64,000 bases of DNA from Tepidanaerobacteraceae bacterium (GTDB lineage Bacteria; Bacillota; Thermosediminibacteria; Thermosediminibacterales; Tepidanaerobacteraceae). Every line of letters starts with the position of its first letter. The stretch's first letter is position 1. Where the stretch lies: contig JANLFP010000008.1 of the NCBI GenBank assembly GCA_024655905.1, forward strand, positions 62,001 to 126,000, given 5' to 3'. The position numbers and the translations under genes were made by a program. Below, piece by piece: positions 9,899 through 27,100 of the stretch. The notes below the pieces were generated by a model that saw only the letters and a program-made list of their open reading frames with translations, did not search any database and was not told where the DNA came from.

Positions 9899-10069
9899 AT
9901 GAGCACTTTTAACGATATAAATAGAGAGTATCATATGGATTTGAAACTTGCCGAGGCTTATGTGCCTATGCAAATGTATGGCGAAATTTTTGATTTGAGG
10001 ACAGCACTGTGTTACGGTACGCTTTTTCCCGAATTATACAGGCCCTATCCAAGAAGAACATCATCGTAA
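9899..10069 (+). CDS. cotJA: Spore coat-associated protein CotJA
   Basis: The product is a 56-residue protein. It contains the family-typical stretch LAEAYVPMQMYGEIF followed by ALCYGTLFPELYRPY. In Bacillus, CotJA and CotJC interact and are assembled into the inner coat of the spore. The start chosen is the ATG behind GGGAGGA at 9886-9892, with spacing of about 7. It is the first gene of a tight cotJABC operon (21 bp to cotJB). Expression in the mother cell under a sporulation sigma factor is expected from the family, but I could not identify a convincing sigma-E box. Confidence 0.9.
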   Translation: MSTFNDINREYHMDLKLAEAYVPMQMYGEIFDLRTALCYGTLFPELYRPYPRRTSS

Positions 10070-10090
10070 AATCATATGGAGGTGAGTATT

Positions 10091-10354
10091 ATGCCGCTCA
10101 ACAATCCTGGCAACATGGTGGAAATGATAAAAGAAATACAGGCAGTGGACTTTGCCGTATATGAATTGGCTCTTTTCTTAGACACCCATCCAGAAGACCG
10201 CCGTGCTTTGGATGAACATAACAAAATGGTAAGAAAATCTTTTCAATTAAAAGCCGGTTATGAAGAAAGATGCGGACCTCTGCGGCTGGATTCCCTTTCC
10301 CAATACCCGTATCAATATGTAAATGAGCCATGGCCCTGGGAAATAGCATACTGA
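10091..10354 (+). CDS. cotJB: Spore coat protein CotJB
   Basis: The product is an 87-residue protein starting at the ATG behind GGAGGTG. It carries the CotJB signatures of an N-terminal IQAVDFAVYELALFLDTHP segment and a C-terminal YGPLSL-like and PWPWE region (here DSLSQYPYQ and PWPWEIAY). Its biochemical role is not established in the family; it is always found with CotJA and CotJC. It sits 21 bp after cotJA and 18 bp before cotJC, clearly in one operon. Confidence 0.9.
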   Translation: MPLNNPGNMVEMIKEIQAVDFAVYELALFLDTHPEDRRALDEHNKMVRKSFQLKAGYEERCGPLRLDSLSQYPYQYVNEPWPWEIAY

Positions 10355-10372
10355 TGACGGGAGGGAAATCGA

Positions 10373-10945
10373 ATGTGGTACTATGAAAAAAAACTGGAAT
10401 ACCCTGCCAATGTTTCCAAGACTGATATGGCTATGGCAAAATTCCTTTATGCGCAATACGGCGGCCCTGACAGCGAACTTTCGGCCGCAGTTAGGTATCT
10501 GACTCAGCGCTATACAATGCCTATCCCCCAGGCGAAGGCAGTCTTAACCGATATTGGCACCGAAGAATTGGCTCATTGGGAAATCATTGGCACTTTGATA
10601 TATAAGCTCACCGACGGGGCAACGCCGGAACAGCTTCGCAGAGCCGGCATGGGCGACCATTACGCCCAGCACGATAATGCTCCGTATCCCCATGATGCCG
10701 CAGGCGTCCCATGGACTGCCGCATATATACAGGCTACCGGAGATCCCATAGCCGACCTGCATGAAGATATGGCCGCAGAACAGAAGGCTCGCACCGCCTA
10801 CGAACACCTGATAAATTTAACCGATGACGCCGGTGTCATAGCTACATTATCCTTCCTGCGCGAACGGGAAGTTGTGCACTTTCAGAGGTTTGGAGAAACC
10901 CTCATGCTGGTAAGGGACTATCTGTCAAGCAAGCACATTTTTTAG
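10373..10945 (+). CDS. cotJC: Spore coat manganese catalase CotJC
   Basis: The 190-residue protein belongs to the Mn-catalase family of four-helix-bundle dimanganese enzymes, which disproportionate hydrogen peroxide in the spore coat. The metal-ligand motifs are visible: a glutamate early in the first helix (DSELSAAVRYL), EELAHWE near residues 64-70, AAEQKA near 131, and REREVVHF near 161-168. A GGGAGGG site precedes the ATG. A nearly identical 97-bp piece of this gene (10815-10911) recurs at 29301-29397 as a remnant. Confidence 0.93.
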   Translation: MWYYEKKLEYPANVSKTDMAMAKFLYAQYGGPDSELSAAVRYLTQRYTMPIPQAKAVLTDIGTEELAHWEIIGTLIYKLTDGATPEQLRRAGMGDHYAQHDNAPYPHDAAGVPWTAAYIQATGDPIADLHEDMAAEQKARTAYEHLINLTDDAGVIATLSFLREREVVHFQRFGETLMLVRDYLSSKHIF

Positions 10946-10971
10946 TACTGAGGTTATGATATAACTGGTAC

Positions 10972-11052
10972 TTTTTGGTACCAAAAAATTTCCTTCCAAT
11001 AGAAGGTACAAAGTGCTTCTTTGTAGAAGTATTTTAAGTACACTTCTATTGG
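10972..11052 (+). other. Palindrome-rich structured segment before a small ORF
   Basis: Three inverted repeats follow one another. TTTTTGGTACCAAAAA (10972-10987) is a perfect 16-bp palindrome. CCAATAGAAG (10996-11005) pairs perfectly with CTTCTATTGG (11043-11052). Inside the latter, TACAAAG-TGCTT-CTTTGTA forms a perfect hairpin (11007-11025). The first could terminate cotJABC transcription; the others could form a cruciform or mRNA structure next to the GGGAGGGGG ribosome binding site of the 31-residue ORF. A mobile-element end is another reading, because a transposase remnant follows. Confidence 0.5.
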
Positions 11053-11754: not shown

Positions 11755-11959
11755 ACTATCCACCTCTTGATATGTTATCTGCTTAAAAATATATCATTAA
11801 TAGAAAGCTTTTTCAATGTTTTTTCTTAGCTTAACTGAAAAAGAACTGGGGATAATGTTGCACTTATGTTTGGGAATTAAAAATAACTAAACTTAGAAGG
11901 CAATTTTACCGATAATATAGTAAAATTAATATTTCATAACCGGGATGGAGGGATGCCAT

Positions 11960-13045
11960 ATGCGAATTGCAGATTCAAAAGTCGCCATGTCTGCCCGTTC
12001 CGATACTGTCAAAACCCATACCAGAGAAGAATCTTTAAAAATATGGATAAATGGAAGAATGTACGATTTTAAAAACAAAAACAGTGCATCAGGGAAATCG
12101 TCCGAATCTTCTAAAGACATCATTACAATATCGGACGGAGCAAAAAACCACCTTGCTCAAACATCTGAATGCGCCGTATATCGAGGTAACGAAAGTTCTA
12201 TCGAATTAAAAATAAGTGAAAATGACAAACAAAAATTGCAGCTTCTTCAGAAAATGTTTGAAGCGCTTACCGGAAAGAAATTAAAATTTTACATTCCAAA
12301 AGAGATAAAAATAGAGACACATCAAGCACAACCGGTGTTATATACAGTAACAAGGCACAATTCTCAGGCAACAAATGGATGGGGCCTCGAGTATAATTAT
12401 AGTGAGTCATATTATGAAAGGCAGACTCTCGCTTTCAATTCAGAAGGCATAATCAAAACCATAGACGGCAGAGAAATCAAATTTTCTGTAGAACTGAACA
12501 CCAGCAGGGAATTTGCATCGCGCGTCAATATAAACACAAGGCGGGGCGAAGCTGTCTCAAAAGATCCGCTCGTGATGAATTTCGACGGAACAATACCGTC
12601 TATAACCGATGAAAAAATTGGATTTGACATCGATTGCGACGGGTCTGACGATTTAATATCATTTCTATCGTCCGGCAGCGGTTTTCTGGCGCTGGATCTA
12701 AACGGCGATGGAACAATCAACGATGGCAGTGAACTTTTTGGCCCCCAGAGCGGCGATGGTTTTGCGGAGCTGGCTAAATATGATTTTGACGGCAACAATT
12801 GGATTGACGAAAATGATCCGATATATGAAAAGCTTCGAATATGGACCAGGGATGACAAAGGAAACGATGTACTGCTAGCCCTGGGGCAAAAAGGCATAGG
12901 CGCTATCTACCTTGGAAATGTGAATACGCTTTTCGACATCAAAAACAGGCAGAATGAACTACAGGGAAAAATTCAAAAAACAGGTATCTTTGTAAACGAA
13001 AACGGCACCACCGGGACAATCCAGCATATAGATATAGCATTATAA
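11960..13045 (+). CDS. Unknown protein with calcium-loop (EF-hand/dockerin-like) motifs
   Basis: This 361-residue protein starts at the ATG behind GGAGGG; a start 15 bases earlier lies within that site. It has no signal peptide. Residues about 1-105 are polar and low in structure. The C-terminal third has several acidic loops resembling calcium ligands: DIDCDGSDD, DLNGDGTINDG and DFDGNNWIDENDP, near residues 220-285, separated by SELFGPQSGDGFAEL. From memory this SELFG arrangement recurs in bacterial surface-associated proteins, but I cannot name a function. It stands alone between decayed loci. Calcium binding is inferred from the DxDxDG pattern only. Confidence 0.7.
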   Translation: MRIADSKVAMSARSDTVKTHTREESLKIWINGRMYDFKNKNSASGKSSESSKDIITISDGAKNHLAQTSECAVYRGNESSIELKISENDKQKLQLLQKMFEALTGKKLKFYIPKEIKIETHQAQPVLYTVTRHNSQATNGWGLEYNYSESYYERQTLAFNSEGIIKTIDGREIKFSVELNTSREFASRVNINTRRGEAVSKDPLVMNFDGTIPSITDEKIGFDIDCDGSDDLISFLSSGSGFLALDLNGDGTINDGSELFGPQSGDGFAELAKYDFDGNNWIDENDPIYEKLRIWTRDDKGNDVLLALGQKGIGAIYLGNVNTLFDIKNRQNELQGKIQKTGIFVNENGTTGTIQHIDIAL

Positions 13046-13492: not shown

Positions 13493-14517
13493 TCAGGTGC
13501 TGTCAGGATATTTTCTGCCGGTATTAAAGAGCACAGCCCATTGCCATCCAGGAACTGCTACTGCGTAGGTGATATCTTCTTTGCCTTCTTCGCTTACTGT
13601 CAATGTAAAGTTATATGTTTCATTCAAATTAACTTCATTTAATGCAAGATATCGTTCTGTTCCATCAGGACTTAGAGAACTCAAAACCTTTGCCGATTAG
13701 GTTTGCTTCTTCCACTTTAACGCTGGACTGAGCCACTAACTGCCCTACTTCTGCGTTTCCGGAAGCAACCAGTCTTACCATACCGTTTACTTTAAGGACA
13801 ACGGCTTTCTTGAGGATGGTGTCGATCAGATGAACGCTGTTGGCGCCGCCACCGTATATGTAGGAAGTGCCTTTGACGGTAACATTTTTCAAAGTAACAC
13901 TGCCCTCACCAACAGCTTTGTCAATGGTTAAATCGCCTTCGATTATGGTGTTCTGTAGAGTTACGCCTTCCGTTTTAATGATAACATTACCTTTTACTAT
14001 GGTAGTATCATCTGCCGGGCCGTAAACCCCTGCTTTATCATAAGTTACGGTCATAGCCTCTGTTGAAGCCAAGGCTTTGTTTAAAGCCACTACCGCTTCG
14101 GCCCGGGTGATGAAGTTCTGTGCCCTGAAGCTGCCGTCGGGATAGCCGCCCATGATGCCGGCTCTGGCTGCCGCGCCGACTGCTCCTTTGCTCCATGCGG
14201 GGATGCCGGCTTCATCGGAAAATTTTGCCGCAGCGTCAGAATCTGCAGCAAGCCCCTTTATCCGCATGAGCACTGTTGCTGCTTCGGCCCTGGTAATAGG
14301 ATTATCCGGCCGGATGGTGCCGTCCTCATAGCCACTGATGTAGCCGGCGGCTTTGGCTTTTGCAACAGTGTCGCAAAACCACGCACCGGCAGGCACGTCT
14401 TTATAGTTTATGGCTGCCTTTTCACTATAACCAAAAGCACCGTTAACCAGTGACATAAACTCCGCCCGGGTAACATTTTTATCGGGTTTGAAGGTACCGT
14501 CAGGATAGCCCTTTTTT
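13493..14517 (-). pseudogene. SLH-domain surface protein remnant
   Basis: Read on the minus strand, the first part gives GYPDGTFKPDKNVTRAEF, then GYISGYEDGTIRPDNPITRAEA and GGYPDGSFRAQNFITRAEA: three S-layer-homology repeats that would anchor a protein to cell-wall polysaccharide. After them comes a parallel-beta region (VIIKTEGVTLQNTIIEGDLT and similar, about 90 residues). The 5' end is lost at about 14517, where a short SLH-like piece on the same strand is joined abruptly. Near 13680 a one-base shift moves the coding frame to LSPDGTERYLALNEVNLNET before a stop. The ATG at 14456 is internal to the first SLH repeat. This gene is truncated and frameshifted, so it is unlikely to be expressed as a whole. 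Confidence 0.7.
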
Positions 14518-14698: not shown

Positions 14699-15649
14699 TC
14701 ATTGCATAGATGCATTTTTCGCTGGAGATTCTTGAAGCAAATTCATCAGGATACTTAAAAGCTCGCCTCCCGACATTGTTTCTATAGAAATTCTATCCCC
14801 GTCGGTATCGATATACAGCAAATTATGCATACCGCAAAAAATTACATAACTTTCAGAATGTAATACCTCAGCGGGCGAAATTAATCTTCCATAGCTGAGG
14901 TTAAATACATATTCCGGTATCAGAAATGTATTGGCGAGATCCAACGCTTCATTCATCAAATAAAATTTGCCGCCTTTTTCTTCGACAATTTTTTTCTCAT
15001 TTAGTTCTTCAAGGACATCCGGCAGATCCCCTTCAGACAAAGAAGCTGAATTTGTAAAATTTTTTAAACTTTTGACAAACCACATTAGGGATTCACCGCT
15101 GTTTGCCCTGGCCGTTATATCACCCGCACTAAAGTTTATGGCTTTCGGTTCTCCCGCCAGCGCCAGCAGAGCAGCGGCGCGATACAAATCGACAAGTGCA
15201 AGAAAAACAAGAGCTGCTTTTTGTGAAAGCATTGTCCGGAAGGGAACATTGACAAACCTGCTGCTTCCGGTAAATTCTTCCATAACAAAGCCAGCCTCCT
15301 TGGTCATGGCAGGAAATGTAACTGCAAAATAACCTGCTCCGCTATCTACAGAACAGGAGGCTTCCCCTTGAAAATAGGTAACCTTATCAACGGGAGCCAT
15401 AGTTCCAAGGATTCTTATCCTTGAAAAGGCGTCGGCACTGGAGAGCACCTTAAAAGCTGCCAGAGCCGAAGGTTGAATGGTGCCGTCCGAAAAAATAACG
15501 TTTTGTGAAATCAACTCTTCTTTTTCCTTTTCGCTAAAATCCGGCGCATATTTTTCAAATATGGCAAATGGCGAAAGGATATTTTTGTCGTCAAAAGCCT
15601 GCGCAAGCCATCCAAACCCTGCCGGAGAAATTTTATAAGTAACAGTCAT
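14699..15649 (-). CDS. Unknown 316-residue protein, last gene of the radical SAM cluster
   Basis: It starts MTVTYKISPAGFGWLAQAFDD. The N-terminal shape (an SPAG..WLA helix, then a mixed alpha/beta region with many short strands) is weakly reminiscent of EspG-like chaperones of type VII secretion, but the resemblance is by eye and may mean nothing. There are no signal peptide, membrane segments or obvious catalytic motifs. A GGGGGAGG ribosome binding site precedes the ATG. The gene lies 19 bp after the coiled-coil TNSSS-signature gene and is clearly in the same transcription unit, so it may assist or bind that protein. Confidence 0.65.
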   Translation of the reverse strand: MTVTYKISPAGFGWLAQAFDDKNILSPFAIFEKYAPDFSEKEKEELISQNVIFSDGTIQPSALAAFKVLSSADAFSRIRILGTMAPVDKVTYFQGEASCSVDSGAGYFAVTFPAMTKEAGFVMEEFTGSSRFVNVPFRTMLSQKAALVFLALVDLYRAAALLALAGEPKAINFSAGDITARANSGESLMWFVKSLKNFTNSASLSEGDLPDVLEELNEKKIVEEKGGKFYLMNEALDLANTFLIPEYVFNLSYGRLISPAEVLHSESYVIFCGMHNLLYIDTDGDRISIETMSGGELLSILMNLLQESPAKNASMQ

Positions 15650-15668
15650 TTGTATACCTCCCCCGATT

Positions 15669-17108
15669 TTAATCTACCACGCCGATCGTTTTACCTAAAT
15701 TATCCACAATCGATCCCTTAATAAAATCCTTGGTTTTATCACCGACACCTTCTCTGATGGCGGTTTTAGTTAAGCCTTTTGTTAACGGATTATTGTTATA
15801 AATTTTCCCCAGGCTGTAGTCATGGATATCAACGGATGAGCCTTTGGGAATTGGCAGTTTTGACTTTATCTTGTCCAGTCCTGCATCTGCCGCCGAATCA
15901 ATCACACCTTTCCCAAGACCCTTTAACCCGCCCGTTAAAACATCTTCGCCCTTAATGCCTGCATCCAGAGCTCCTTGTGCTCCTTCATTGGCAACGTTAA
16001 CTATGGCTGATTTGAAAGGGTTTTCTCCAAACTTGTCTTTAACCACTTCGGTGACCGCACCGATAAAACCCTTAGCCAGGTGTTTGCCGGCGTTTTTGGG
16101 GTCCGCCATGCCTTCCCCCATGCCGCTTGCGATGCTTTTGCCGGATTTATAGAGCAGCTTAATTTGCTGCCCTGCAGGACCGGTAACGTGCGAAAGACCT
16201 TCAATAGCCATATCGGCACCAAACTGTACACCCTCGGCGGCTTTGGTTGCCAGGTCCCAACGGGCAGCAGCTTTCATGGCTTCCTTAAACTCTTCTTCTG
16301 CTTGTTTCATTGCCATCTCCAACTGTTTTCTTTTTTCCCTATCCGCTGCAGCTTTGTCAAATTCTATTTCCGCTTTTTTCCTCATATACTCTTTTTGAAT
16401 TTTGTCAAATTCCGCCCCCGGCCCTATAACGCCTCTGTCCCGGGCAGTATATTCGATGCTGGCATTGTTTTCAGCCAGAGTTTTGCCAAGTTCCTTCTCC
16501 CGCTCATCAAGTTGTTTCAATCTTTCCTCTATGTCTTTGACATTATAGCCTTTTTCACCATAGCCTTTGAGCGTTGCCTCCAGCAATGCCCGCTCCTCTT
16601 TTACGGCAATATAGTCAACCTGCCTTTGCCTTATCCATTCATTTTTTGATTCAAGTTCTGCCTGCTTTTCCGCTTTCTCAACCTGAATCAGATATTTTTC
16701 ATAGTCCTTTTGCTTTATTTCGTTTTCAAGATACTTCATGTACTCATCATATTGGGCTTTAAGCTTATCATATCCAGGATCTTTCTTGTCTGCTGTCTTT
16801 TCCGACTCTTCCCACTGTTTTTTTATTTCTTCAAGCTTGGATGCCAAACTTTTAATTTCTTCTTCAAGGTTTTTTTCCGCTTCACTATAGCCTTCCATGA
16901 TGGCTTTGCTCTGATATTCTGCTTCTTGACCGACAGCCTCCGCAATTTTCTCTGCCACATCAGCCGCATCCCCGATAAGCATTTCTTTAACAGCATTAGC
17001 CATGGCAGTAATGGCTCCCGCAGCAATCAGCGCACTTGCCGTATCCACCAAGACAATAGCGAAGCTTTCACTGGAAGAATTTGTCACAAAATCCATTTTA
17101 ATCTTCAT
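15669..17108 (-). CDS. Coiled-coil protein with N-terminal FVTNSSSESF signature; candidate radical SAM substrate
   Basis: The 479-residue protein starts at the ATG behind AGAGGTG, 11 bp after the radical SAM gene. Residues 1-15 read MKIKMDFVTNSSSESF. I recall this kind of start (DFVTNSSSxSF) from many otherwise unrelated bacterial proteins, without a known function. A small hydrophobic, alanine-rich stretch follows (about 17-40). Then comes a long charged coiled coil (about 50-290, full of EK/QK heptads), then a glycine/alanine-rich tail with GKSIASGMGEGM and AGIKGEDVLTGGLKGLGKGV. The tail resembles C-terminal regions of large secreted or phage-like proteins. No enzyme motif is seen. The immediately upstream radical SAM/SPASM gene makes it a plausible modification substrate, with Ser/Asn of the signature as candidate sites; this is inference. 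Confidence 0.75.
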   Translation of the reverse strand: MKIKMDFVTNSSSESFAIVLVDTASALIAAGAITAMANAVKEMLIGDAADVAEKIAEAVGQEAEYQSKAIMEGYSEAEKNLEEEIKSLASKLEEIKKQWEESEKTADKKDPGYDKLKAQYDEYMKYLENEIKQKDYEKYLIQVEKAEKQAELESKNEWIRQRQVDYIAVKEERALLEATLKGYGEKGYNVKDIEERLKQLDEREKELGKTLAENNASIEYTARDRGVIGPGAEFDKIQKEYMRKKAEIEFDKAAADREKRKQLEMAMKQAEEEFKEAMKAAARWDLATKAAEGVQFGADMAIEGLSHVTGPAGQQIKLLYKSGKSIASGMGEGMADPKNAGKHLAKGFIGAVTEVVKDKFGENPFKSAIVNVANEGAQGALDAGIKGEDVLTGGLKGLGKGVIDSAADAGLDKIKSKLPIPKGSSVDIHDYSLGKIYNNNPLTKGLTKTAIREGVGDKTKDFIKGSIVDNLGKTIGVVD

Positions 17109-17119
17109 TTTTTCACCTC

Positions 17120-18184
17120 TTATTTCATTTCTTTGCACAAAACGATTTCGGGTAAAATAGGGCATCCGCCCAGACAATTTTCGTAGTTGCGGCAGCCATT
17201 GCACTTATGCAAAAACGCACCGCGGAATTTATCAAATTCTTCGCTGTTCCATGCTTGTTCAATGCTGTTGTCTTCAAGGTCTATTCCAAACTGAGGTCTT
17301 GTTTCAAAACTGCAGGGATAAAGCTTAAAATCCGGCGAAATATACGCTGAAAACCTCGCAGCCTCACAGGGTTCAATAGTAGAAGAATGGATTTTGCTCG
17401 TAAAGCTCAAAAGCGCAGGAACGCTGCAGCTATCAAATCCGGCTTTATTGGCATTTTCGGGCAGATCAAAAAGAGAGAAAAAATGTCTCACACGCTCATC
17501 ATAAACGGAGAGCATATTCTCTTTTCTCCCCTGGCCCACGGGTTTATGCAGCAGAAAAATAATGCGATTGATGCCTTTGGGATATGTTTTGTTGCAAATC
17601 ATCTCTATGGCTTCATCTATTGTTGAACAATTGATGCAATAATGAATATTTGTTTTTATACCGGCAGACAGCAGCATATCAATGGCCCGTATTGTGTATT
17701 TACTCCTGTACCAGCTCACGGCAACCACTCCACAATACTGCTTTATAGCAGGTAATAAATCTTTATTCAGTCCAAATCCCGATGTGGTAAAGTTTGGAAC
17801 AATGCCGTTTATACGGGCATAATGCAGCATATCGACAAAATTTTCGTGCATGTCCGGATCGCCTCTGCCCCCAAGAGCTACTTGAAAGGTTCTGCCTTTA
17901 CATTCATCGATGATCCTTTTAAATTTATCAAATGACATATTTTCCTGTTCAACAATAAATCCGTTTTGATAGCATTCAACTCCAGACTTGATACAAAGAC
18001 CGCTCTTCCCATGGGCACAATGCCCCATGATACCAATATCCAATAATTCCGGAAAACTTGCCCTGAAAGGATCAACTTCTGTATCATTGCCGTCTTTATC
18101 GTAAACATTGGAACGAATACTAAAGCCGGTTTCCTGGTCAAATACGCTAACATAATTATATCTGCGGTCAACAATGGTAATCAT
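17120..18184 (-). CDS. Radical SAM/SPASM-like enzyme with C-x7-C-x6-C cluster motif
   Basis: The 354-residue protein has the overall layout of peptide-modifying radical SAM enzymes. The N-terminal segment LLDIGIMGHCAHGKSGLC places cysteines at 56, 64 and 71, spaced C-x7-C-x6-C in place of the usual C-x3-C-x2-C. It is followed by CYQNG, as in many radical SAM proteins (CxFCYQ). A GGRGDP element near residue 105 takes the place of the GGEP motif that binds SAM. The C-terminus (about 275-352) has seven cysteines in a SPASM-like pattern (LYPCSF, KCNGCRNYENCLGGCP, LC), expected to hold auxiliary Fe-S clusters. Its start overlaps the end of the membrane-protein gene (ATGA), and the candidate substrate gene follows 11 bp downstream. 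Confidence 0.85.
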   Translation of the reverse strand: MITIVDRRYNYVSVFDQETGFSIRSNVYDKDGNDTEVDPFRASFPELLDIGIMGHCAHGKSGLCIKSGVECYQNGFIVEQENMSFDKFKRIIDECKGRTFQVALGGRGDPDMHENFVDMLHYARINGIVPNFTTSGFGLNKDLLPAIKQYCGVVAVSWYRSKYTIRAIDMLLSAGIKTNIHYCINCSTIDEAIEMICNKTYPKGINRIIFLLHKPVGQGRKENMLSVYDERVRHFFSLFDLPENANKAGFDSCSVPALLSFTSKIHSSTIEPCEAARFSAYISPDFKLYPCSFETRPQFGIDLEDNSIEQAWNSEEFDKFRGAFLHKCNGCRNYENCLGGCPILPEIVLCKEMK

Positions 18185-19053
18185 TTCGTCTCCCTCTGCC
18201 TCAATGCCAGAGGCATTAAAACGGCAACGGCCATCAATGCTCCGCCAAGTATATAACCTCCATACATAAGCTTAAACAAAACAAGCGGTGCATCAAACAA
18301 AAGTCCTGCTACGAAACCTGATAAAAGTATATAAGTATGATCGTCGGTGTAAGTATATGGCCTTTTCATGATGCGTGAAATATCCTTGCTTGCAAGCCTC
18401 GCAAATTTAAACATCCAATTTTTTCTACTCTCACCCATGACATAGCTGACCGCAAAGGAAATAACAAGAACTACAAAATATTTGTCTATCTTGTTGCGAG
18501 CCTCGGGAAAACGGCTGTAGCTGGCAAAATTATTGGCAACGATGAGCCCTGCGCCGCCTCCTGTCAAAAGAAGCGAATATGCCTTCTCTTGCAATGTCAG
18601 ATAGGCTCTTTTGAATTCCGGTACAATTTGCTTTATAGGACTTATTGCATTAGCAAATCCCTGATTTTTAATTTTCAGAAATAGCCTTTTTCCAAAAGTA
18701 AAAACAATGACCCAGTAGATTGTCTTCGGTATTATATCGTTATAGGTCGCTGTTAAAAAAATAATGGCTGTTACAAAGAAGGCAATGGGCCCGGGCAGCT
18801 GCCATGTCTTAATTGGCCAGAAAATCAAATTGACCGCTAGCACTATTCCTGATTGAATCAGCAGTTGTCCGCCTATTTTCGGCACAGAATAGATTCCTCG
18901 CCTGAATGATTCAATTAACCAGGAGGCCAAAGTTTCTTTTTTTTCCGGTCTCACCGCTGAAAATTGATTATTTTGCTGGAACGGCGAATCTACCGGCTTT
19001 ATAGGCTTTACAGGTTTTGGTATGCGTGGTAAAAAGTTCTCCAGTTCAATCAT
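18181..19053 (-). CDS. Multi-pass membrane protein of the radical SAM cluster, unknown
   Basis: The 290-residue protein has a proline-rich soluble N-terminus (residues 1-55, with PRIPKPVKPIKPV) and about six membrane segments between residues 60 and 285. The start is the ATG at 19053 behind GGAGG; an ATG 12 bases upstream lies inside that site. I do not recognise the family. It could be a transporter, a secretion component or an anchor for the downstream products. The 4-nt overlap with the radical SAM gene indicates tight co-translation. Confidence 0.7.
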   Translation of the reverse strand: MIELENFLPRIPKPVKPIKPVDSPFQQNNQFSAVRPEKKETLASWLIESFRRGIYSVPKIGGQLLIQSGIVLAVNLIFWPIKTWQLPGPIAFFVTAIIFLTATYNDIIPKTIYWVIVFTFGKRLFLKIKNQGFANAISPIKQIVPEFKRAYLTLQEKAYSLLLTGGGAGLIVANNFASYSRFPEARNKIDKYFVVLVISFAVSYVMGESRKNWMFKFARLASKDISRIMKRPYTYTDDHTYILLSGFVAGLLFDAPLVLFKLMYGGYILGGALMAVAVLMPLALRQRETK

Positions 19054-19121
19054 ATTAACCTCCATTCCGCCGCTGCTATTGGCGGCACAAGCATAATGAT
19101 AATGATAAAGTTATTCTTCAA
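19050..19121 (-). CDS. Possible 23-residue hydrophobic leader ORF (TTG start)
   Basis: A TTG behind GAGGGTGG opens a short frame, MKNNFIIIIMLVPPIAAAEW and three more residues, whose TGA overlaps the membrane-protein ATG as ATGA. The length and overlap suggest translational coupling or a small membrane peptide. Frames just upstream on the same strand (19123-19330, ending QKKLRGW and TVLGI) look coding in places but lack starts and are interrupted. This leader may therefore be part of decayed sequence. Confidence 0.25.
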   Translation of the reverse strand: MKNNFIIIIMLVPPIAAAEWRLI

Positions 19122-19342
19122 GCTACCACCCTCTCAGTTTTTTTTGCAGGTCATCAGCGAGATTGGGGTTTTGGTTCTTATCTGTTTTTAACCCATCACC
19201 ATAATGACCGCGGCGGGCTGCTTAATTTTTTTATTCAAATGCCGAGAACTGTTTTTCCCTCGTTACTGGGCAGACCGCTTTTGTTGGGGATGCTGCCAGG
19301 AATACTCTTAACTTTGCCGGCATGCTATATTATCCAATACTT

Positions 19343-19432
19343 TTATATGATGCAGATATATGTTATCAACCATGGCATGATAAATAGAAATGCAAAAAGT
19401 TCGTGAAAAACAATTCCAGCAAATGTCTGCAT
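19343..19432 (-). CDS. Possible 29-residue single-span membrane peptide
   Basis: The first ATG after the predicted minus-strand promoter opens MQTFAGIVFHELFAFLFI followed by MPWLITYICII. It is one continuous hydrophobic span with a GGGATAG sequence 2-8 bases before the start. It would be the first product of the radical SAM cluster transcript. I do not recognise it, and coding is not proven. Between it and 19122 I see only interrupted frames. Confidence 0.3.
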   Translation of the reverse strand: MQTFAGIVFHELFAFLFIMPWLITYICII

Positions 19433-19444
19433 TACTATCCCAAA

Positions 19445-19549
19445 AATAATCATAACAAAATTTTTCATAATATATCAATAAAGTCAGCCAATTTGTCATT
19501 GACATTTTGTTTGTCATCAATCAGTGACAATAATTTTTCATCAAAAATC
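19445..19549. promoter_or_regulatory. Control region, copy 1, between the HTH regulator and the radical SAM cluster
   Basis: On the minus strand a sigma-A-like promoter is visible: -35 TTGATA (19473-19478), 18-bp spacer, -10 TATGAT (19449-19454). Upstream of it is a cluster of TGTCA/TGACA elements (19494-19530, including TTGTCATTGACA, TTTGTCATC and CAGTGACAA) that form overlapping inverted repeats, as expected for a dimeric HTH regulator. The whole segment recurs at 29055-29157. The adjacent regulator gene is the natural candidate to bind it. Confidence 0.6.
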
Positions 19550-19565
19550 CAACACAACAAAAATA

Positions 19566-19574
19566 TGATATAAT
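19566..19574 (+). promoter_or_regulatory. Extended -10 promoter of the HTH regulator gene
   Basis: TGATATAAT is a perfect extended -10 element (TGn plus TATAAT) 26 bp before the regulator ATG. No good -35 hexamer lies 17 bp upstream, which is usual for extended -10 promoters. The TGTCA repeats lie just upstream, so this promoter could also be autoregulated. Confidence 0.5.
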
Positions 19575-19599
19575 ACTAGCAAATGAGGAGGTGACAACC

Positions 19600-21147
19600 A
19601 TGCCGTTTAGCCACCGGCTAAATCTTTTAATGAACACTCTCGGCATATCCAACAGCCGACTGGCTAAGGTTTTATCGGTAGATGCTTCACTCGTCAGCCG
19701 TTGGCGCACAGGAGCGCGCACACCTGCAAAAGCCAACACTCACATTGCAGAAATCGCATCATACTTCGCTGAACATGCAAAAATGGATTATCAAAAGACA
19801 GCCTTATGCGAAATAATGGGTCTGCCCGCGGATAAATGCGTAAAAGATACTCATAAGCTTGCTGAACTTTTATATAGTTGGCTTTGCGATGAATCTATGC
19901 CTGACACAAAAATTATCACTAGATTTCTTGACAACCTAGGAACATTTAAAGCAACAAAAAGTCCTTTGCCTCCTGTCAATGAGGAAAAATCCGTCCCTGC
20001 CGGTATGACGCTTAAGTCAGAAGTGTTTTACGGCATAAAAGGCAAACAGGACAGCGTAATCCGGTTTTTGTCAGCAGTATTGGAACATAAAAAACCCTGC
20101 ACCCTGCTTTTATATAGTGATGAAGACATAGAGTGGTTTGCTGGGGATCGGCTATTTCTGGCAAGCTTTGTTCAACTGCTTATCAAAGTCATCTCCAAGG
20201 GAAACAAGATAAGGATCATACATACAATAAACCGCGATATGTCCGAGATGTTTGCGGCAATCGACTTTTGGCTGCCTTTATATATGACGGGAGAAATCGA
20301 ACCTTACTATTGCCCCAGGTACCGGGAGCATTATTTCCGTAGGACTATGTTTATTGCTCCCGGTATTGCTGCGGTGTTATCAACATCTTTGTTCGGCTGG
20401 GAGAAAAATGCAGCAAACCTTTTTTGTACTGACCCTAGGTTAATTGAGTCACTTACCGGTGAATTCAACGAATATCTTAATATGTGCCGCCCTCTTATGC
20501 GCATTTTTACTTCCAATAGTTCTCCGGAGCTTGCCAATCTGTTGACAGAGTTTGAAGAGCAACCCGGTGATTGCTTCGTTTTATCCAACTCCCTCTCTGC
20601 CATCACCATGCCGGAAAGGCTTCTTGATCGTTTGCTCAGCCGTGCCGGTGCAGACGGCATGACGAAAGAAAAAATGCTCTCTGTTCAGAGAGCAAGGTAC
20701 AATGTTTTTGCAGCCAATCTCAAACATTACAATTATACCGAAATCGTATTCCTGCCATCACCCGATGAAATAACAGCAGGCCGTATTCCCGTAGAACTGC
20801 CGGGGCTTCCGGGGGGCACAGCCCTCTGTTATACCCCGCACGATTATAGAGAACATCTTGAAAACATCATCGGATTACTTAACCATTTTGACAAATTCAG
20901 TTTTTTCATTTGCCGGCGCGGTCCCAACCTGAAAGTCCACCTGGCCGTGAAGGATGAAACAGGTGTAATCGTCACAAAAACGGACGCTCCGATTACGGTT
21001 TTTGCCTTCAACCAGCAGAACATGACAAATGCTTTCTATTGCTACCTTGAGGATTTTATCAACAACATACCCCAGGCGGAACGGGATAAAAAAAAGGTAA
21101 TTGAAAAACTTTCGAGTCTTGCAGGCAGCCTGAGCAATGAATGCTGA
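19600..21147 (+). CDS. HTH (XRE-like) regulator with large unknown sensor domain
   Basis: The 515-residue protein starts at the ATG behind AGGAGGTG. Residues about 3-60 form an XRE/Cro-type helix-turn-helix (LGISNSRLAKVLSVDASLVS then RWRTGARTP). The remaining 450 residues are a cytoplasmic domain I cannot name; it has no kinase, receiver or TPR hallmarks. The gene is divergent from the radical SAM cluster across a region of TGTCA repeats. Its stop is 18 bp from the stop of the giant surface-protein gene that converges on it. A 130-bp piece of this gene (20602-20735) recurs at 29158-29290 together with the control region. It probably controls the radical SAM cluster, and perhaps the surface-protein operon too. 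Confidence 0.75.
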   Translation: MPFSHRLNLLMNTLGISNSRLAKVLSVDASLVSRWRTGARTPAKANTHIAEIASYFAEHAKMDYQKTALCEIMGLPADKCVKDTHKLAELLYSWLCDESMPDTKIITRFLDNLGTFKATKSPLPPVNEEKSVPAGMTLKSEVFYGIKGKQDSVIRFLSAVLEHKKPCTLLLYSDEDIEWFAGDRLFLASFVQLLIKVISKGNKIRIIHTINRDMSEMFAAIDFWLPLYMTGEIEPYYCPRYREHYFRRTMFIAPGIAAVLSTSLFGWEKNAANLFCTDPRLIESLTGEFNEYLNMCRPLMRIFTSNSSPELANLLTEFEEQPGDCFVLSNSLSAITMPERLLDRLLSRAGADGMTKEKMLSVQRARYNVFAANLKHYNYTEIVFLPSPDEITAGRIPVELPGLPGGTALCYTPHDYREHLENIIGLLNHFDKFSFFICRRGPNLKVHLAVKDETGVIVTKTDAPITVFAFNQQNMTNAFYCYLEDFINNIPQAERDKKKVIEKLSSLAGSLSNEC

Positions 21148-21165
21148 CGCATAATTTCCACTATT

Positions 21166-24100
21166 CTACAGCAAATCCGCCTTTTCCAGCACGCGCTTAA
21201 GCAGCGCCGCCGCCTGCGCCCTGGTGAGCCTCCCAGCGGGATCAAGCCTTTCTTCCGAACTCCCTCGCAGGAGGCCGCTGCCCACAGCCGCAGCCAGGTT
21301 GGCGCGCGCCCAGACGCCCGCTTCACCGGCGTCCTTATAGGATGCCAGAACACTTTCCGGTGCCGGCGGCACCTGCACCTGCAGGCGCTGGAGGAGCCGT
21401 ACGACCATAACCGCGGCCTCTTCGCGGCTGATGTTTTTCTCCGGCCCGAAGGTGCCATCCGGGTAGCCGCTGATCAGCCCAGCCGCGGCAACGTTTTTCA
21501 CCGCGCCGGCATACCATACATCCGCAGGTACGTCAGTAAAATTCTTAACTGCTTCTTTCTGCTCCCCTTGCCCCGCGAACGTCAAGGCGTTGGCCAGCAG
21601 GGCGGCGAATTCTGCCCTGGTGATGGCTCTGTCCGGGGCAAAGCTACCGTCCGGCAGGCCGCCCACCAAGTAACGGGCAGCCAGGAGCTCCACGTCGTTT
21701 TTCGCCCAGTGGCCCGCAAGGTCGGCAAAAGCGCGTGTATCTTCAAACACGCTGTAGCGGGAAAGGTGCGTGAGCTTGACGCTAACGGTGAGGGTGGCGG
21801 TATCCGCCCTGCCGCCTACATAGCGCCACTTTCCTTCCTCCCACCGGTAGATGCCCAACCTATTGGGGTTTTGCACCTTTTCCGGATCATAAGGGAGAAC
21901 CAGGTGCATTTCGCCAAGAAGGTCCGCCTCTTTTTGCCCCTGCCGGACGCGGGCCGTGACCTCAACGTCTGCGCCGGCCGGCTTTAAGGTGGCCGGTACG
22001 GGCAAAGCAACCTCCTGGGGTCTGGCGATGCTTACCATGACCTGGCTGGTAGCGTCCGCTTCGAGCAGCGCCTGCGCCAGCGCCGGAGTCACGATCAGGG
22101 AGGCGTTTTCGGAAACGATGTGCACTTCGCGCTTTTTGTCCATCATCTCCGTAAGGGCACCGCTTTCAACGAGCACACCCCGGGCGGCCTCCGCAGGGGT
22201 AAATTTTTTGGAGAAGAATGGCTGACCGCTCTCTCTCACTTCCGGAGCCGATACCGCAGGCATCGCCGGAGATGACTGTTGGGATGCGGAAACCGTGCCG
22301 CCTCCGCCACCACCGCCGGAAGAAAAGGTGGCACAGGTCAGTTCGTCCGACCAGTCGGATTCGTTACCCGCCGCATCCGCGGCCCGGACCCTGAAGATAT
22401 AGGCCGTGCCTGGGGCAAGCCCGGTTGCTGTGTAAGAGGTATCTGCCGTTTCTCCGGCCGAAGTAAAGTCGGTGGTGCTCTGGCGTTTCATTTCCAACTG
22501 GTACTTTGCCACCCCTACGTTGTCGGCAGAGGCATCCCAGGCCAGGGTAATGGATGAGGAGGTACGGGATATCAGCCGCAAGTTCTTAGGCTTTTCAGGA
22601 GGCTGACTGTCTGCCGGCGCGGCTACTGTCTTAAAGCTCCAAGTTATGGCGTCGTTGTACGTTGCGTATACCACACTTTGGACGGAACCGGCCGGAACCG
22701 TTGCCAGGTAGACAGTATCGTAAAGAAGGTCTGTGAAGCTTACCGTAAGCGTACTGTTGTACACACTTCCGGCCACAGTCCGGGTCCGCCCTCCTGCCGG
22801 GGTCAACTCAACAGCCACGGATTGGCTATCCCGGACGGGAATGTCGAAGACCACCCGGATCTCTCCGCCCACCGGGACGTTCTCCCCGGCGGGTGAGAAG
22901 GAAGAAGCCGCCGGATTCGGGTAAACCGGCTCAGCAGCGGTGGAGAAGGTGAAGGAATACGGCACCCCCAAAAGGTTACCGCAAAGGTCCGCCACCGCCC
23001 CCGCAGGCAGATAAACGGAATAAACGGCGCTATGATCAAGAACTTTCACGGGATCGAGGGTAAGAATAGATCCGTTTAACTCATAAACGTAGTCAACCGT
23101 TGATCCGTTTTGATTTGTAATGGTTATTCCGCCGATATTGACTCCCGTCTGCACGTCTTCGTCGAAATAGATGGCGACGGTCTTATCCACCGGGACATTA
23201 GGTGCGTTATCCTGCGGGTCGGTGGCCCTCACCTGCGGTGGAAAGGTGTCGCTGAAGGGCAGCGCCTTGACCGTGAGGTCAAAGGTCTTGGTGTCGATCG
23301 CCGCCCCCTTGCTGATGGTCGCTGTGAGGGTGACATGCTTGTCGCCCTGGCTGTAGGAAGGCCGCGTTACCTTGCCGTCATTACCGATTACGGAGGTGTC
23401 GCTGCTCTCCCAGGTGATGGTGGTGCCGCTCGCGCCGCTTGCCGGCAGTACGAGGTCGCTGGTGATGTTATCTGGTGCCGTATTCGCTCCCTTAATCACG
23501 TTGAAGGTCAACGCTTCTTTGTCCGCCGCCACGGCTTCGGCGTCGGTCTGCTCCAGCGCCTTGACCGTGAGGTCAAAGGTCCTGGTGTCGCTGGCCGTTC
23601 CTTTGCTGACGGTAGCGGTGAGGGTGACATGCTTGTCGCCCTGGCTGTAGGAAGGCCGCGTTACCTTGCCGTCATTACCGATTACGGAGGTGTCGCTGCT
23701 CTCCCAGGTGATGGTGGTGCCGCTCGCGCCGCTTGCCGGCAGTACGAGGTCGCCCGTGATGTTGTTGGCCTCACTGTTGGTACCCTTGATGACGTCGAAG
23801 GTCAGGGCCGCTTTATCCGCCGCTACGGCCTGTTCGTCGGAAGATTTCGCATATAATCCTACATTATCATAATAGATCTCATTCGTTTCTGTATTTCCTG
23901 CTGTCAAATTCAGTTTCGTTGGAGTAACTGTCTGGGACATAGGAATGTTTTCTGCTACTTTAACGCCGTTAATATAAACATCATAGGTTTTAGCTGCAAT
24001 ATGATGCTCCATTGTAATCCTGTACCAACTACCCATTGTATATGTACCCAGTTCTAACAACTGTGAGTCATTACCATTTTGAACTGCAGTTATTTTCCCA

Positions 24101-27100
24101 TTGCTATCGAATAACACTCCGGAAACTCTTGTACCCCATGACCCAACGTTTGGATTGTACAAGCCGATGCGCCCCGGCCACGATCCGCTGACAGGTTTTA
24201 CATAAGCGTCAATCACCAACGTTTCGGGAAGGGGAGAAGGCAAATCAACAAGCTGCTCGGATGCCCAACTAGATGCGCCCTCTAGTCTAAATACTTTTGT
24301 GGAATTTCCGTCATACCCCGAAGTAGTAATTACCTTTTGATTTGCTGTGCCGGTACCGTTGTACAATAGAGCAAATGAAGTCGGATAAGCATTTTCCGCG
24401 TAAGACTCAAAGTCTTCATAGAAGAGCGCCGTTTGCACGGGTTCCCACACAGCGTAAAGGGTCACATTTGCCGCACCCATGCTAAAGGTTTGCCCCTCAG
24501 TGTAGGTCGTCCCGCTCCCATCTGCCGCGGTGTTCCACCCCGCAAAGGAATAGCCGCTCTTGGCAAGGCCGCCGGTGTTGCCCAGCACCGTCACCGTTGC
24601 CCCCTCTTCATAGGTATTAGTGTCTACCGGCACAGTCCCCGATGTTGCGCCATTGCCGTCGTAGGCTACGGTGTAGCTCGCAGTGCCGCCAGCCGGCACA
24701 TAGACTACGAACTCGGTGAAGTGCTTGGTCCAGATGACGAGATCGCTGCCGACGTTTATGAAGGCCTCGCCGTTTTGGGGTATCTCACTATCGGCGTTCT
24801 CCTGCTTATCCTCTGTGAGAATACGCGTGATGGGGGTAAAAACTCCGCTTCTTATATAGCCGACAGCCTTGCCCGCCTGGCCGGGAATGACCAGCCTCAC
24901 GGCCCGGTCGAAGGTCAGCGCTACGTCAGGCAGCCCGACCTCGATCACCGTCTCCACCCTTTGGGCCTGGCTTATCGTCACGCTAGGCCGGTCCTTCACT
25001 TCGGGCAATTTGATGTTTCCGTCCCATTCCGTCGGCCCGCTCACTATAGTCTCGGAGGGGATCTGCATCCTCACGGTCCCCAGGCTGCTCCCCCCCTGGA
25101 GCTCCACCTGCGCTTCTACCCGCGGTAGGGTGGCCTCCTTTTTGCCCTCTCTGGCCTGAGGGGCCAGTTCCAGCTTGGCTTCGGTCACGCTCTGGGGAAC
25201 GGCGACTGCAACCGGGGTATCGGCCTGCACGGCCACAACCTTCTGCTCTGCGTCAAGGGTCACTGTTTGCAGCTCCTTCACCGTGATCGCACAGGCCGCG
25301 GTCTTGTTGCCGTCGGCTGTGGTCACCGCAACGGTGGCGGTGCCGGCGCCGATAGCTTTTACCTTCCCGTTTTCGTCCACGGTGGCCACGTCTGGATTGC
25401 TGCTCTCCCATGTTACTCTCCGGTTAGTAGCGTTAGCCGGTGTCACTGTGGCTACCAGAGTGACCTCCTCCCCAGGTGTGAGACTCAGGGCCGGACGGTT
25501 AAGGCTTACCCCGGTTACCGGCACTGCCGGCGGCGGGCCGGCGCCATCTTCAGTTAAGAAGAACGTAACGAAGTGAGAGCCCTGCACTCCGCCTTCCGTC
25601 CAGGCGAAAAGGCCAAGCTCGTATCCCTGCCCTACGTCTTCTCCCGGGATCATGTAGGCCTCTCCCAGGCCGCGCAGGTCCACGGTGAAGGAGAAGGCGT
25701 TGTCCGGTCCTTGAAGTGTACCTATATTGACTCCGTGTACCACAACACCTTCATAACCAGGCGCGCCCATTAGGGCGTAGCTCAGGATTCGCGCCTCAAA
25801 AGCAGTTATGTTCTCCCCGGGGATGCTTCCGGAAACCTGCAGCACCGGGTTGGAAAGGGGAATTTTTGCCCCCTGCTCGGGCTGGCTTACGAGGATATCC
25901 ACCCAGCCCGGCTGCCCGCTTCCACCGCCACCGGGAAATACCTGTACCGTTGCCGAAGCCTGCACATGGCCGTCGGCCGAGGCAGCGGTAATAATAGCGG
26001 TGCCTTCAGCGACGGCTGTGATCAAACCGTCGTTGTTCACCGTGGCTATGCCAGGATTGTCAGAAGTCCAAATAACCCCCCTGTCAGTTGCGTTTTCGGG
26101 GTAAATCAACGCCTCGAGCCGGCATGTTTCCCCAACGTAAAGGCCGATACTGCTTGCCGCGGTCTGGGTCCCGGCGAACACCAGGTCAATGCGCTCCACC
26201 GGCACCGCGCCTCCGGTTTGACGGAGCGCCCCTATCTCGAGGAGAACCCCATAGGCTTTGCCGTACTGTTCAACGGCTTTCACCTGCTGATTGTAGTTGA
26301 GCCCGGACGCGTCCTGGCGCCACTGATTAATCTTCGCAAGGTACTCATCATAGCGGGCGTTAAAGTCGGTGTCGCTCAAGCCGAGCCACTCGTTTTTTTC
26401 GGCTTCCAGTTCCTCGGTCAAAAAGAATAACTCGTAATAGGGTTCGCTGTTGCTCTGCAGCTCGTCTATGACCGAGGGTATATCGGACGGTTGTCGATTC
26501 TTCTGGTATTCTGAGTATATGCCAGGATTTTCTGATAGAAAATCCCAAGGTGTGCTAATTTTTCTACCCAATATATCGGATATGTTCGAATAGGAATAAA
26601 ACGTGGGTACCTCGGCGAGAAGGTAACTTAGCTGGTTAAGGTCATAGGCGAAATTCCGCTTGCCAAGCTCTATCTTTCTCAAATAGTCAATCTCCTGCTG
26701 CCTTATACCCTTGAGTTCATCGATTATTTCGGCTATCTTTTCGTCGCGCTTATCGGGCGGCTGCTGGTTGATCAGCTCACCCCAGAGATAGGCGCGGTTG
26801 ACAATTGGATTCGGGTAGTAAAAGTACGGTTGGTTATACAGGCGTTCCAGAGCAACGGCGTTGCCGTAAAAGTACCCGGCGCTGTTCTGAAGGTTGGCAT
26901 AGAGAGAATCGTAAGGTGCCAGAGTTTCTCTTATCGCATCTTCAAAGGCCTGGGCCTCTTCGTTGAAACGGCTCAGGTTCCGGTTGATTCGCTCCCGTTC
27001 TTCATTCATTAATTCCAGCCAGAAGTAGTCCGATTCTGTGTCCGAGAAGTTATCCTCATAAAGCATGAACTTGAGATTATTCTTCACTGCTTCCGGCGTC

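What the first reader, a model, noticed from the sequence alone, without database searches (positions are those of the whole stretch)
14699..19600. Candidate new system: atypical radical SAM enzyme, TNSSS-signature coiled-coil protein, membrane protein and HTH regulator
Seen: a four-gene minus-strand cluster with 4-nt or 11-19 bp junctions and a divergent HTH regulator. A SPASM-like radical SAM enzyme is followed at once by a 479-residue protein starting with KIKMDFVTNSSSESF, then an unknown 316-residue protein; a six-span membrane protein comes first. Known: SPASM radical SAM enzymes usually modify a peptide or protein encoded next to them. Inference: the coiled-coil protein is modified, perhaps at the Ser/Asn-rich signature, and then secreted or membrane-assembled with the two unknown proteins.
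Basis: partly seen in the sequence, partly recalled or inferred. Interest (0 to 1): 0.85.

Follow-up and report, generated by a model that had tools for sequence, protein, structure and literature searches.

The report
Radical SAM enzyme with N-terminal protein tag
A radical enzyme of an undescribed subfamily is almost always found with proteins that share one near-invariant 16-residue N-terminal tag but are otherwise unrelated, in bacteria, archaea and large phages, which points to an unrecognised enzyme-plus-tag protein modification system.

Summary
The window's SPASM radical SAM (rSAM) enzyme lies next to a protein starting MKIKMDFVTNSSSESF. In 299 genomes of the window's phylum, 8 encode this rSAM subfamily and the same 8, no others, encode a signature protein, within about 450 nt. 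Of 85 cellular loci found with the rSAM alone, 79 have a signature gene within 1.5 kb, always on the same strand. Of 36 virus contigs of 100 kb or more chosen by the signature alone, 30 encode the rSAM.

The signature (MK[IV][RK]x[DG][FY]V[TS]NSSSxS[FY]) is 74% identical between proteins that are 7% identical just beyond it: coiled coils, leucine-rich repeats, small phage proteins, partners of STAND NTPases and others. In one modelled partner the tag is a disordered tail on a folded domain. I conclude that the enzyme recognises and most likely modifies this tail; the chemistry is unknown. In the window the target is probably a membrane-anchored coiled-coil protein that works with a conserved membrane protein and a possible EspG-like chaperone. 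The window enzyme's cluster motif is CX7CX6C, not CX3CX2C. No held paper describes the signature. No modification has been shown.

The parts
18181..19065 (-). Membrane protein, 294 aa, about 5-6 hydrophobic segments; first gene of the operon (family f5)
   Evidence: homologs directly upstream of the rSAM in L009-L011, L013-L015, L020, L021, 24-54% identity over seven of them
17120..18184 (-). Radical SAM/SPASM enzyme, 354 aa, cluster motif CX7CX6C (C56, C64, C71), SPASM-region cysteines C253, C273, C291, C328, C331, C337, C341, C350
   Evidence: AlphaFold2 pLDDT 95.1; closest folds PqqE, SuiB, anSME, a sactipeptide maturase (5wgg/5why), SkfB
15669..17108 (-). Signature protein, 479 aa: N-terminal tag + hydrophobic segment + coiled coil + Gly-rich region; no cysteine
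17061..17108 (-). The 16-residue signature MKIKMDFVTNSSSESF (proposed recognition and modification tag)
17007..17063 (-). Hydrophobic segment FAIVLVDTASALIAAGAIT (residues 16-34) directly after the signature
   Evidence: the 12 signature proteins of the window type have the 12 most hydrophobic segments at this place among the signature proteins examined
14699..15649 (-). 316-aa soluble protein (family f32), possibly EspG-like chaperone fold
   Evidence: homologs after the signature gene in L013, L014, L037; weak Pfam EspG match in two homologs, not in the window protein; its profile's only PDB hits up to E 10 are three EspG sequences, best E 0.07
19591..21147 (+). Divergent HTH regulator, 518 aa; membership not supported by conservation
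   Evidence: no counterpart near related loci

Best explanation
A SPASM-type radical SAM enzyme recognises an N-terminal tag, MK[IV][RK]x[DG][FY]V[TS]NSSSxS[FY], carried by otherwise unrelated full-length proteins, and installs a post-translational modification in that tail. In the window the substrate is a membrane-anchored coiled-coil protein; after modification it is handled by the 316-aa protein (chaperone-like) and assembled with the operon's membrane protein. Shown here: the strict enzyme-tag association, selection on the tag at protein level, absence of a shared feature downstream, a SPASM fold with full auxiliary-cluster cysteines. Inferred: that the enzyme is catalytic on the tag, that the tag rather than the body is the modified site, and the membrane assembly. 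The chemistry cannot be a Cys thioether in the window protein, which has no cysteine. Position 7 is always F, Y or H although the extraction pattern also allowed L, W, I and M, so an aromatic cross-link (cyclophane type) is my first guess, followed by Ser oxidation and epimerisation.
For: Same 8 of 299 genomes carry rSAM and signature, 0 elsewhere, control 0. Lachnospiraceae, 250 genomes: strict signature in 3, all with the rSAM; rSAM in 6, signature adjacent in 5 with a looser motif. 79 of 85 cellular loci fetched by rSAM alone have a signature gene within 1.5 kb, 83 of 83 such genes on the rSAM's strand; 4 signature genes in the remaining 1.09 Mb. 30 of 36 virus contigs of 100 kb or more chosen by the signature carry the rSAM; T4-like phages with the rSAM but no neighbouring tag carry two tagged genes about 20 kb away. 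Tag identity 74% against 7% in the next 60 residues. First 10 residues disordered (pLDDT about 40) on a well-folded domain in a 133-aa partner. Fold neighbours are largely peptide- and protein-modifying SPASM enzymes.
Against: No modification has been observed anywhere. Six of 36 large tagged virus contigs show no rSAM; one Lachnospiraceae genome (G186, partial rSAM match) and L043/L044 (rSAM fused in frame to a foreign tail) have no adjacent tag. A leader-peptide role with modification elsewhere in the body is not excluded. Genomes in the co-occurrence test share ancestry (8 genomes, 7 genera).
Confidence: 0.72

Rival explanations
1. Leader model: the tag is only a docking leader, as in RiPP precursors, and the modified residues lie elsewhere in each protein body.
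For: Closest enzymes (SuiB, PqqE, SkfB) act on precursor peptides; one partner family has an invariant Cys and a nearly invariant C-terminal Trp far from the tag; some transporter-linked partners end in Cys-containing tails.
Against: Bodies share no residue or motif downstream (7% identity); bodies are full-length proteins of 66-919 aa, some with ordinary domains; 28 of 141 complete signature proteins have no Cys; no shared C-terminal core.
Confidence: 0.17
2. Non-catalytic partnership: the rSAM protein binds the tag as a chaperone or redox sensor without modifying it.
For: The CX7CX6C and other spacings depart from the canonical motif, so activity cannot be assumed; T4-like phage enzymes lack part of the SPASM cysteines.
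Against: Radical SAM and SPASM cysteines are invariant or nearly so across 70 sequences, and the spacing types fall on few branches of one tree, as expected of an enzyme under selection.
Confidence: 0.07
3. The tag is a membrane-targeting or export signal and the rSAM is a co-inherited neighbour with another substrate.
For: In the window type the tag precedes a hydrophobic segment.
Against: Most tagged proteins have no hydrophobic segment; association holds when the genes are about 20 kb apart in phages and is exclusive in 299 genomes.
Confidence: 0.03

Closest known systems
SPASM radical SAM RiPP maturases (SuiB/SuiA, PqqE/PqqA, SkfB/SkfA, CteB)
   Same: SPASM rSAM gene next to its presumed ribosomal substrate; closest folds and closest PDB profile hits.
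   Different: Substrates are full-length, unrelated proteins sharing an N-terminal tag, several per enzyme in phages; variant cluster motif; no separate RRE gene seen.
Anaerobic sulfatase-maturating enzymes (anSME)
   Same: SPASM enzyme that modifies a short motif in a large protein; close fold.
   Different: No C/S-x-P/A-x-R motif in the tag, and the tag is shared by unrelated folds rather than one enzyme family.
FxSxx peptide + rSAM/SPASM peptide-processing modules of VMAP ternary conflict systems (PMC7159879)
   Same: Conflict-system operons that pair a SPASM rSAM with a modified product; parallel to the STAND NTPase loci found here.
   Different: Different motif; the window has no such NTPase or peptidase module.
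Mycobacterial EspG chaperones of type VII secretion
   Same: Weak profile similarity of the 316-aa family to EspG.
   Different: No T7SS ATPase above cut-off in this genome; the similarity is below Pfam's cut-off.

Membership tests
Radical SAM superfamily | CX3CX2C cluster motif | tested here: not met
   Window enzyme has CX7CX6C; relatives CX3CX2C, CX7CX2C, CX5CX3C, CX7CX8C
Radical SAM superfamily | Radical SAM fold | tested here: met
   AlphaFold2 pLDDT 95.1; Foldseek best hits PqqE 4.5e-11, SuiB 5.4e-11, anSME 3e-10
SPASM-domain enzymes | C-terminal SPASM domain, CX2CX5CX3C...C | tested here: met
   PF13186 28.9 bits over cut-off 21.5; C328, C331, C337, C341, C350 in at least 90% of 70 sequences
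Known NCBIfam rSAM/SPASM equivalogs | Score above a curated equivalog cut-off | tested here: not met
   Best 43.9 bits against cut-off 380
RiPP precursor systems | Short precursor peptide with leader and core | tested here: not met
   Substrate candidate is 479 aa; others 66-919 aa with no shared core
anSME-sulfatase | C/S-x-P/A-x-R motif in substrate | tested here: not met
   Signature MKIKMDFVTNSSSESFAIV has no such motif (sequence)
anSME-sulfatase | Catalytic Asp next to the auxiliary-cluster Cys | tested here: inconclusive
   Invariant C291-S292-F293; equivalence to anSME C276-D277 is from memory and motif position only
STAND NTPase (Avs-like) conflict systems | STAND/NACHT NTPase in the operon | tested here: not met
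   Absent in the window; present upstream in the CX3CX2C type of the subfamily
FxSxx/VMAP peptide-processing systems | FxSxx peptide and VMAP module | tested here: not met
   No such genes among the window cluster's neighbours; definition from PMC7159879
Type VII secretion | EssC/EccC ATPase in the genome | tested here: not met
   Best TIGR03928 match 121 bits against cut-off 778, partial, as in many controls
EspG chaperones | EspG family profile match | tested here: inconclusive
   L014 homolog 25.9 bits (cut-off 27), E 9e-6; window member no match; PDB profile hits only EspG, best E 0.07
Protein modified at the tag | Mass change in the N-terminal peptide | not testable with these tools
   Needs mass spectrometry

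The most novel reading that the evidence does not exclude
A general tag-directed protein modification system in which one radical SAM enzyme marks many unrelated proteins at a shared N-terminal tail, and in which the mark is used on both sides of phage-bacteria conflict: by STAND NTPase operons in bacteria and archaea and by large phages that encode the enzyme with arrays of up to eight tagged proteins.
Probability: 0.3. Interest if true: 0.95.

Novelty: new variant of a known kind. Interest (0 to 1): 0.86.

Why it matters
If the tag is the modified site, this is a radical enzyme that marks full-length proteins of unrelated fold through one portable 16-residue tail, which would be both a new protein modification and a usable tagging chemistry. 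The same enzyme-tag pair sits in STAND NTPase operons that look like defence systems, in membrane-protein operons such as the window's, and in phages including relatives that infect laboratory E. coli, so the question of what the mark does can be tested directly. The CX7CX6C cluster spacing also widens what counts as a radical SAM site.

Tried and rejected
Rejected: chance or DNA-level conservation of the signature (0 control hits in most searches; synonymous serine codons vary freely). The looser pattern gave one chance match in 385 Bacteroidota (a non-signature peptide, with 2 control hits), so its noise floor is about one per several hundred genomes; all eight own-phylum matches encode the true signature. 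Pseudomonadota: rSAM in 1 of 398, too rare for a 2x2 test. Cys-thioether chemistry in the window protein rejected (no Cys). No shared C-terminal core found. T7SS not present at cut-off. The tagged-protein domain of the STAND type has no significant PDB fold match. PADLOC gives only weak viperin matches for the window enzyme. Literature: the motif strings occur in no relevant held paper; searches for rSAM with STAND, SMEK or phage gave only PMC7159879 as a parallel.

Full report
Observation. The four minus-strand genes are as described: membrane protein 18181-19065, rSAM 17120-18184, signature protein 15669-17108, 316-aa protein 14699-15649, with a 4-nt overlap and gaps of 11 and 19 nt. The rSAM has a Pfam SPASM domain above cut-off and no equivalog. 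Its cluster motif, GHCAHGKSGLCIKSGVECYQ, is CX7CX6C. The signature protein, membrane protein and 316-aa protein match nothing useful in Pfam or NCBIfam.

Association in cells. A genome-contig scan with the rSAM alignment alone returned 80 loci; with the window, one same-phylum genome and three plasmids there are 85 cellular loci. A signature gene lies within 1.5 kb in 79 and within the locus in 81; all 83 near genes are on the rSAM's strand, and only 4 lie in the other 1.09 Mb. The four without: L019 ends just after the rSAM; L043 and L044 have an rSAM fused in frame to a foreign tail; L046 has five signature genes elsewhere in its genome. In 299 genomes of the window's phylum the rSAM occurs in 8 and the signature in the same 8, with 0 control matches (by my arithmetic a one-sided Fisher value near 7e-16, not corrected for shared ancestry). 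In 250 Lachnospiraceae the rSAM occurs in 6 (at least 130 bits; unrelated enzymes below 55), the strict signature in 3 of those and in none of the other 244; with a looser motif 5 of 6 have it adjacent.

Association in viruses. Viral contigs found by rSAM often carry signature genes in arrays, six in L096, five in L100 and eight in L102. Starting from the signature instead, 30 of 36 contigs of 100 kb or more encode the rSAM; the six others carry real signature genes and may be fragments or use another enzyme. T4-like phages such as KP15 carry the rSAM with two signature genes about 20 kb away; in 50,697 phage records the rSAM is found in 173 and the two tagged proteins in 175 and 174, with nearly the same host breakdown (one lineage, so not independent).

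The tag. Across 143 proteins the consensus is MK[IV][RK]x[DG][FY][VI][TS]NSSS[ST]S[FY][IV]. N was fixed by the pattern; the three serines were free to be T or A and are S in all 143, although L032 carries a variant NSSD. Position 7 is F, Y or H only. The 173 virus proteins agree, but their pattern fixed NSSS. For 12 unrelated representatives the tag is 74% identical on average and the next 60 residues 7%. Bodies include LRR, a PQQ-type beta-propeller and BRCT, the window coiled coil, PDGT-repeat proteins in the same operon type and small phage proteins. In the 133-aa partner of the STAND type, residues 1-10 are modelled as disordered and the fold starts at residue 13. A conserved, flexible tail shared by unrelated bodies is what a modifying enzyme would need.

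Contexts. STAND-like NTPase with SMEK or trypsin N-terminus, a 125-aa protein, a 132-aa tagged protein and a CX3CX2C rSAM, in over 40 loci from several phyla; the window type; HTH plus 124-aa tagged protein plus rSAM in Lachnospiraceae, Selenomonadaceae and virus contigs; rSAM plus large LRR or propeller tagged proteins; tagged protein plus rSAM next to an ABC transporter that looks like a FecCD/BtuF type (L003, L081-L084; family from sequence inspection); phage arrays. The NTPase link suggests conflict functions for that branch only.

The window type. Membrane protein, rSAM and tagged protein are conserved in eight relatives; the 316-aa gene in three. All twelve tagged proteins of this type have a hydrophobic segment right after the tag, the strongest among the signature proteins examined, so the tail would sit at a membrane. 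The 316-aa family resembles EspG chaperones weakly, with no T7SS in the genome.

The enzyme. A 98-row tree puts the window rSAM with L009 and L010 and needs only four changes to explain five motif spacings. Eight SPASM-region cysteines and the outer two of the radical SAM cysteines are invariant or nearly so. Fold and profile neighbours are largely peptide- and protein-modifying SPASM enzymes. The window substrate has no Cys, so thioether formation is excluded there; an aromatic cross-link is my guess, at perhaps one in three.

Conclusion. What is shown is an enzyme-tag association; what is inferred is the modification and its purpose. It works like a SPASM maturase acting on proteins; it is not a member of any named maturase family tested.

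Noticed in passing
L003, L081-L084 and L164: Tagged protein and rSAM sit next to an ABC transporter resembling siderophore/cobalamin uptake systems (L003, L081-L084); some of these tagged proteins, and that of L164, end in Cys-containing tails, a possible metallophore-like product.
   Followed up: partly
L043 and L044, rSAM at 9989-10999: The rSAM is intact to about residue 190 and then continues in frame into an unrelated tail resembling the end of a tagged protein in L042, as if a deletion joined the two neighbouring genes.
   Followed up: partly
G433 (L161) and virus contig G992 (L305): rSAM matches with in-frame stop codons (one TAG; one TAG and one TAA), either decay or recoding.
   Followed up: no
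G072 contig 59 (L113, L130), Thermoplasmatales MAG: Five tagged genes in about 5 kb of an archaeal MAG, some resembling phage tagged families; perhaps an archaeal virus or provirus.
   Followed up: no
L137:1016-1486 (Klebsiella phage KP15, KP15_97): One tagged T4-like phage protein matches a PHROG called head-tail adaptor (E 8e-10) after its tag.
   Followed up: no
window 21166-28665 and 13665-14456: A 2499-aa protein whose C-terminus reads like S-layer homology repeats and, downstream of the cluster, a 263-aa SLH-domain protein; the cluster lies between two S-layer-like genes.
   Followed up: no
window 11945-13045: A 366-aa ORF with Asp/Gly-rich, calcium-binding-like stretches and no confident Pfam match.
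   Followed up: no
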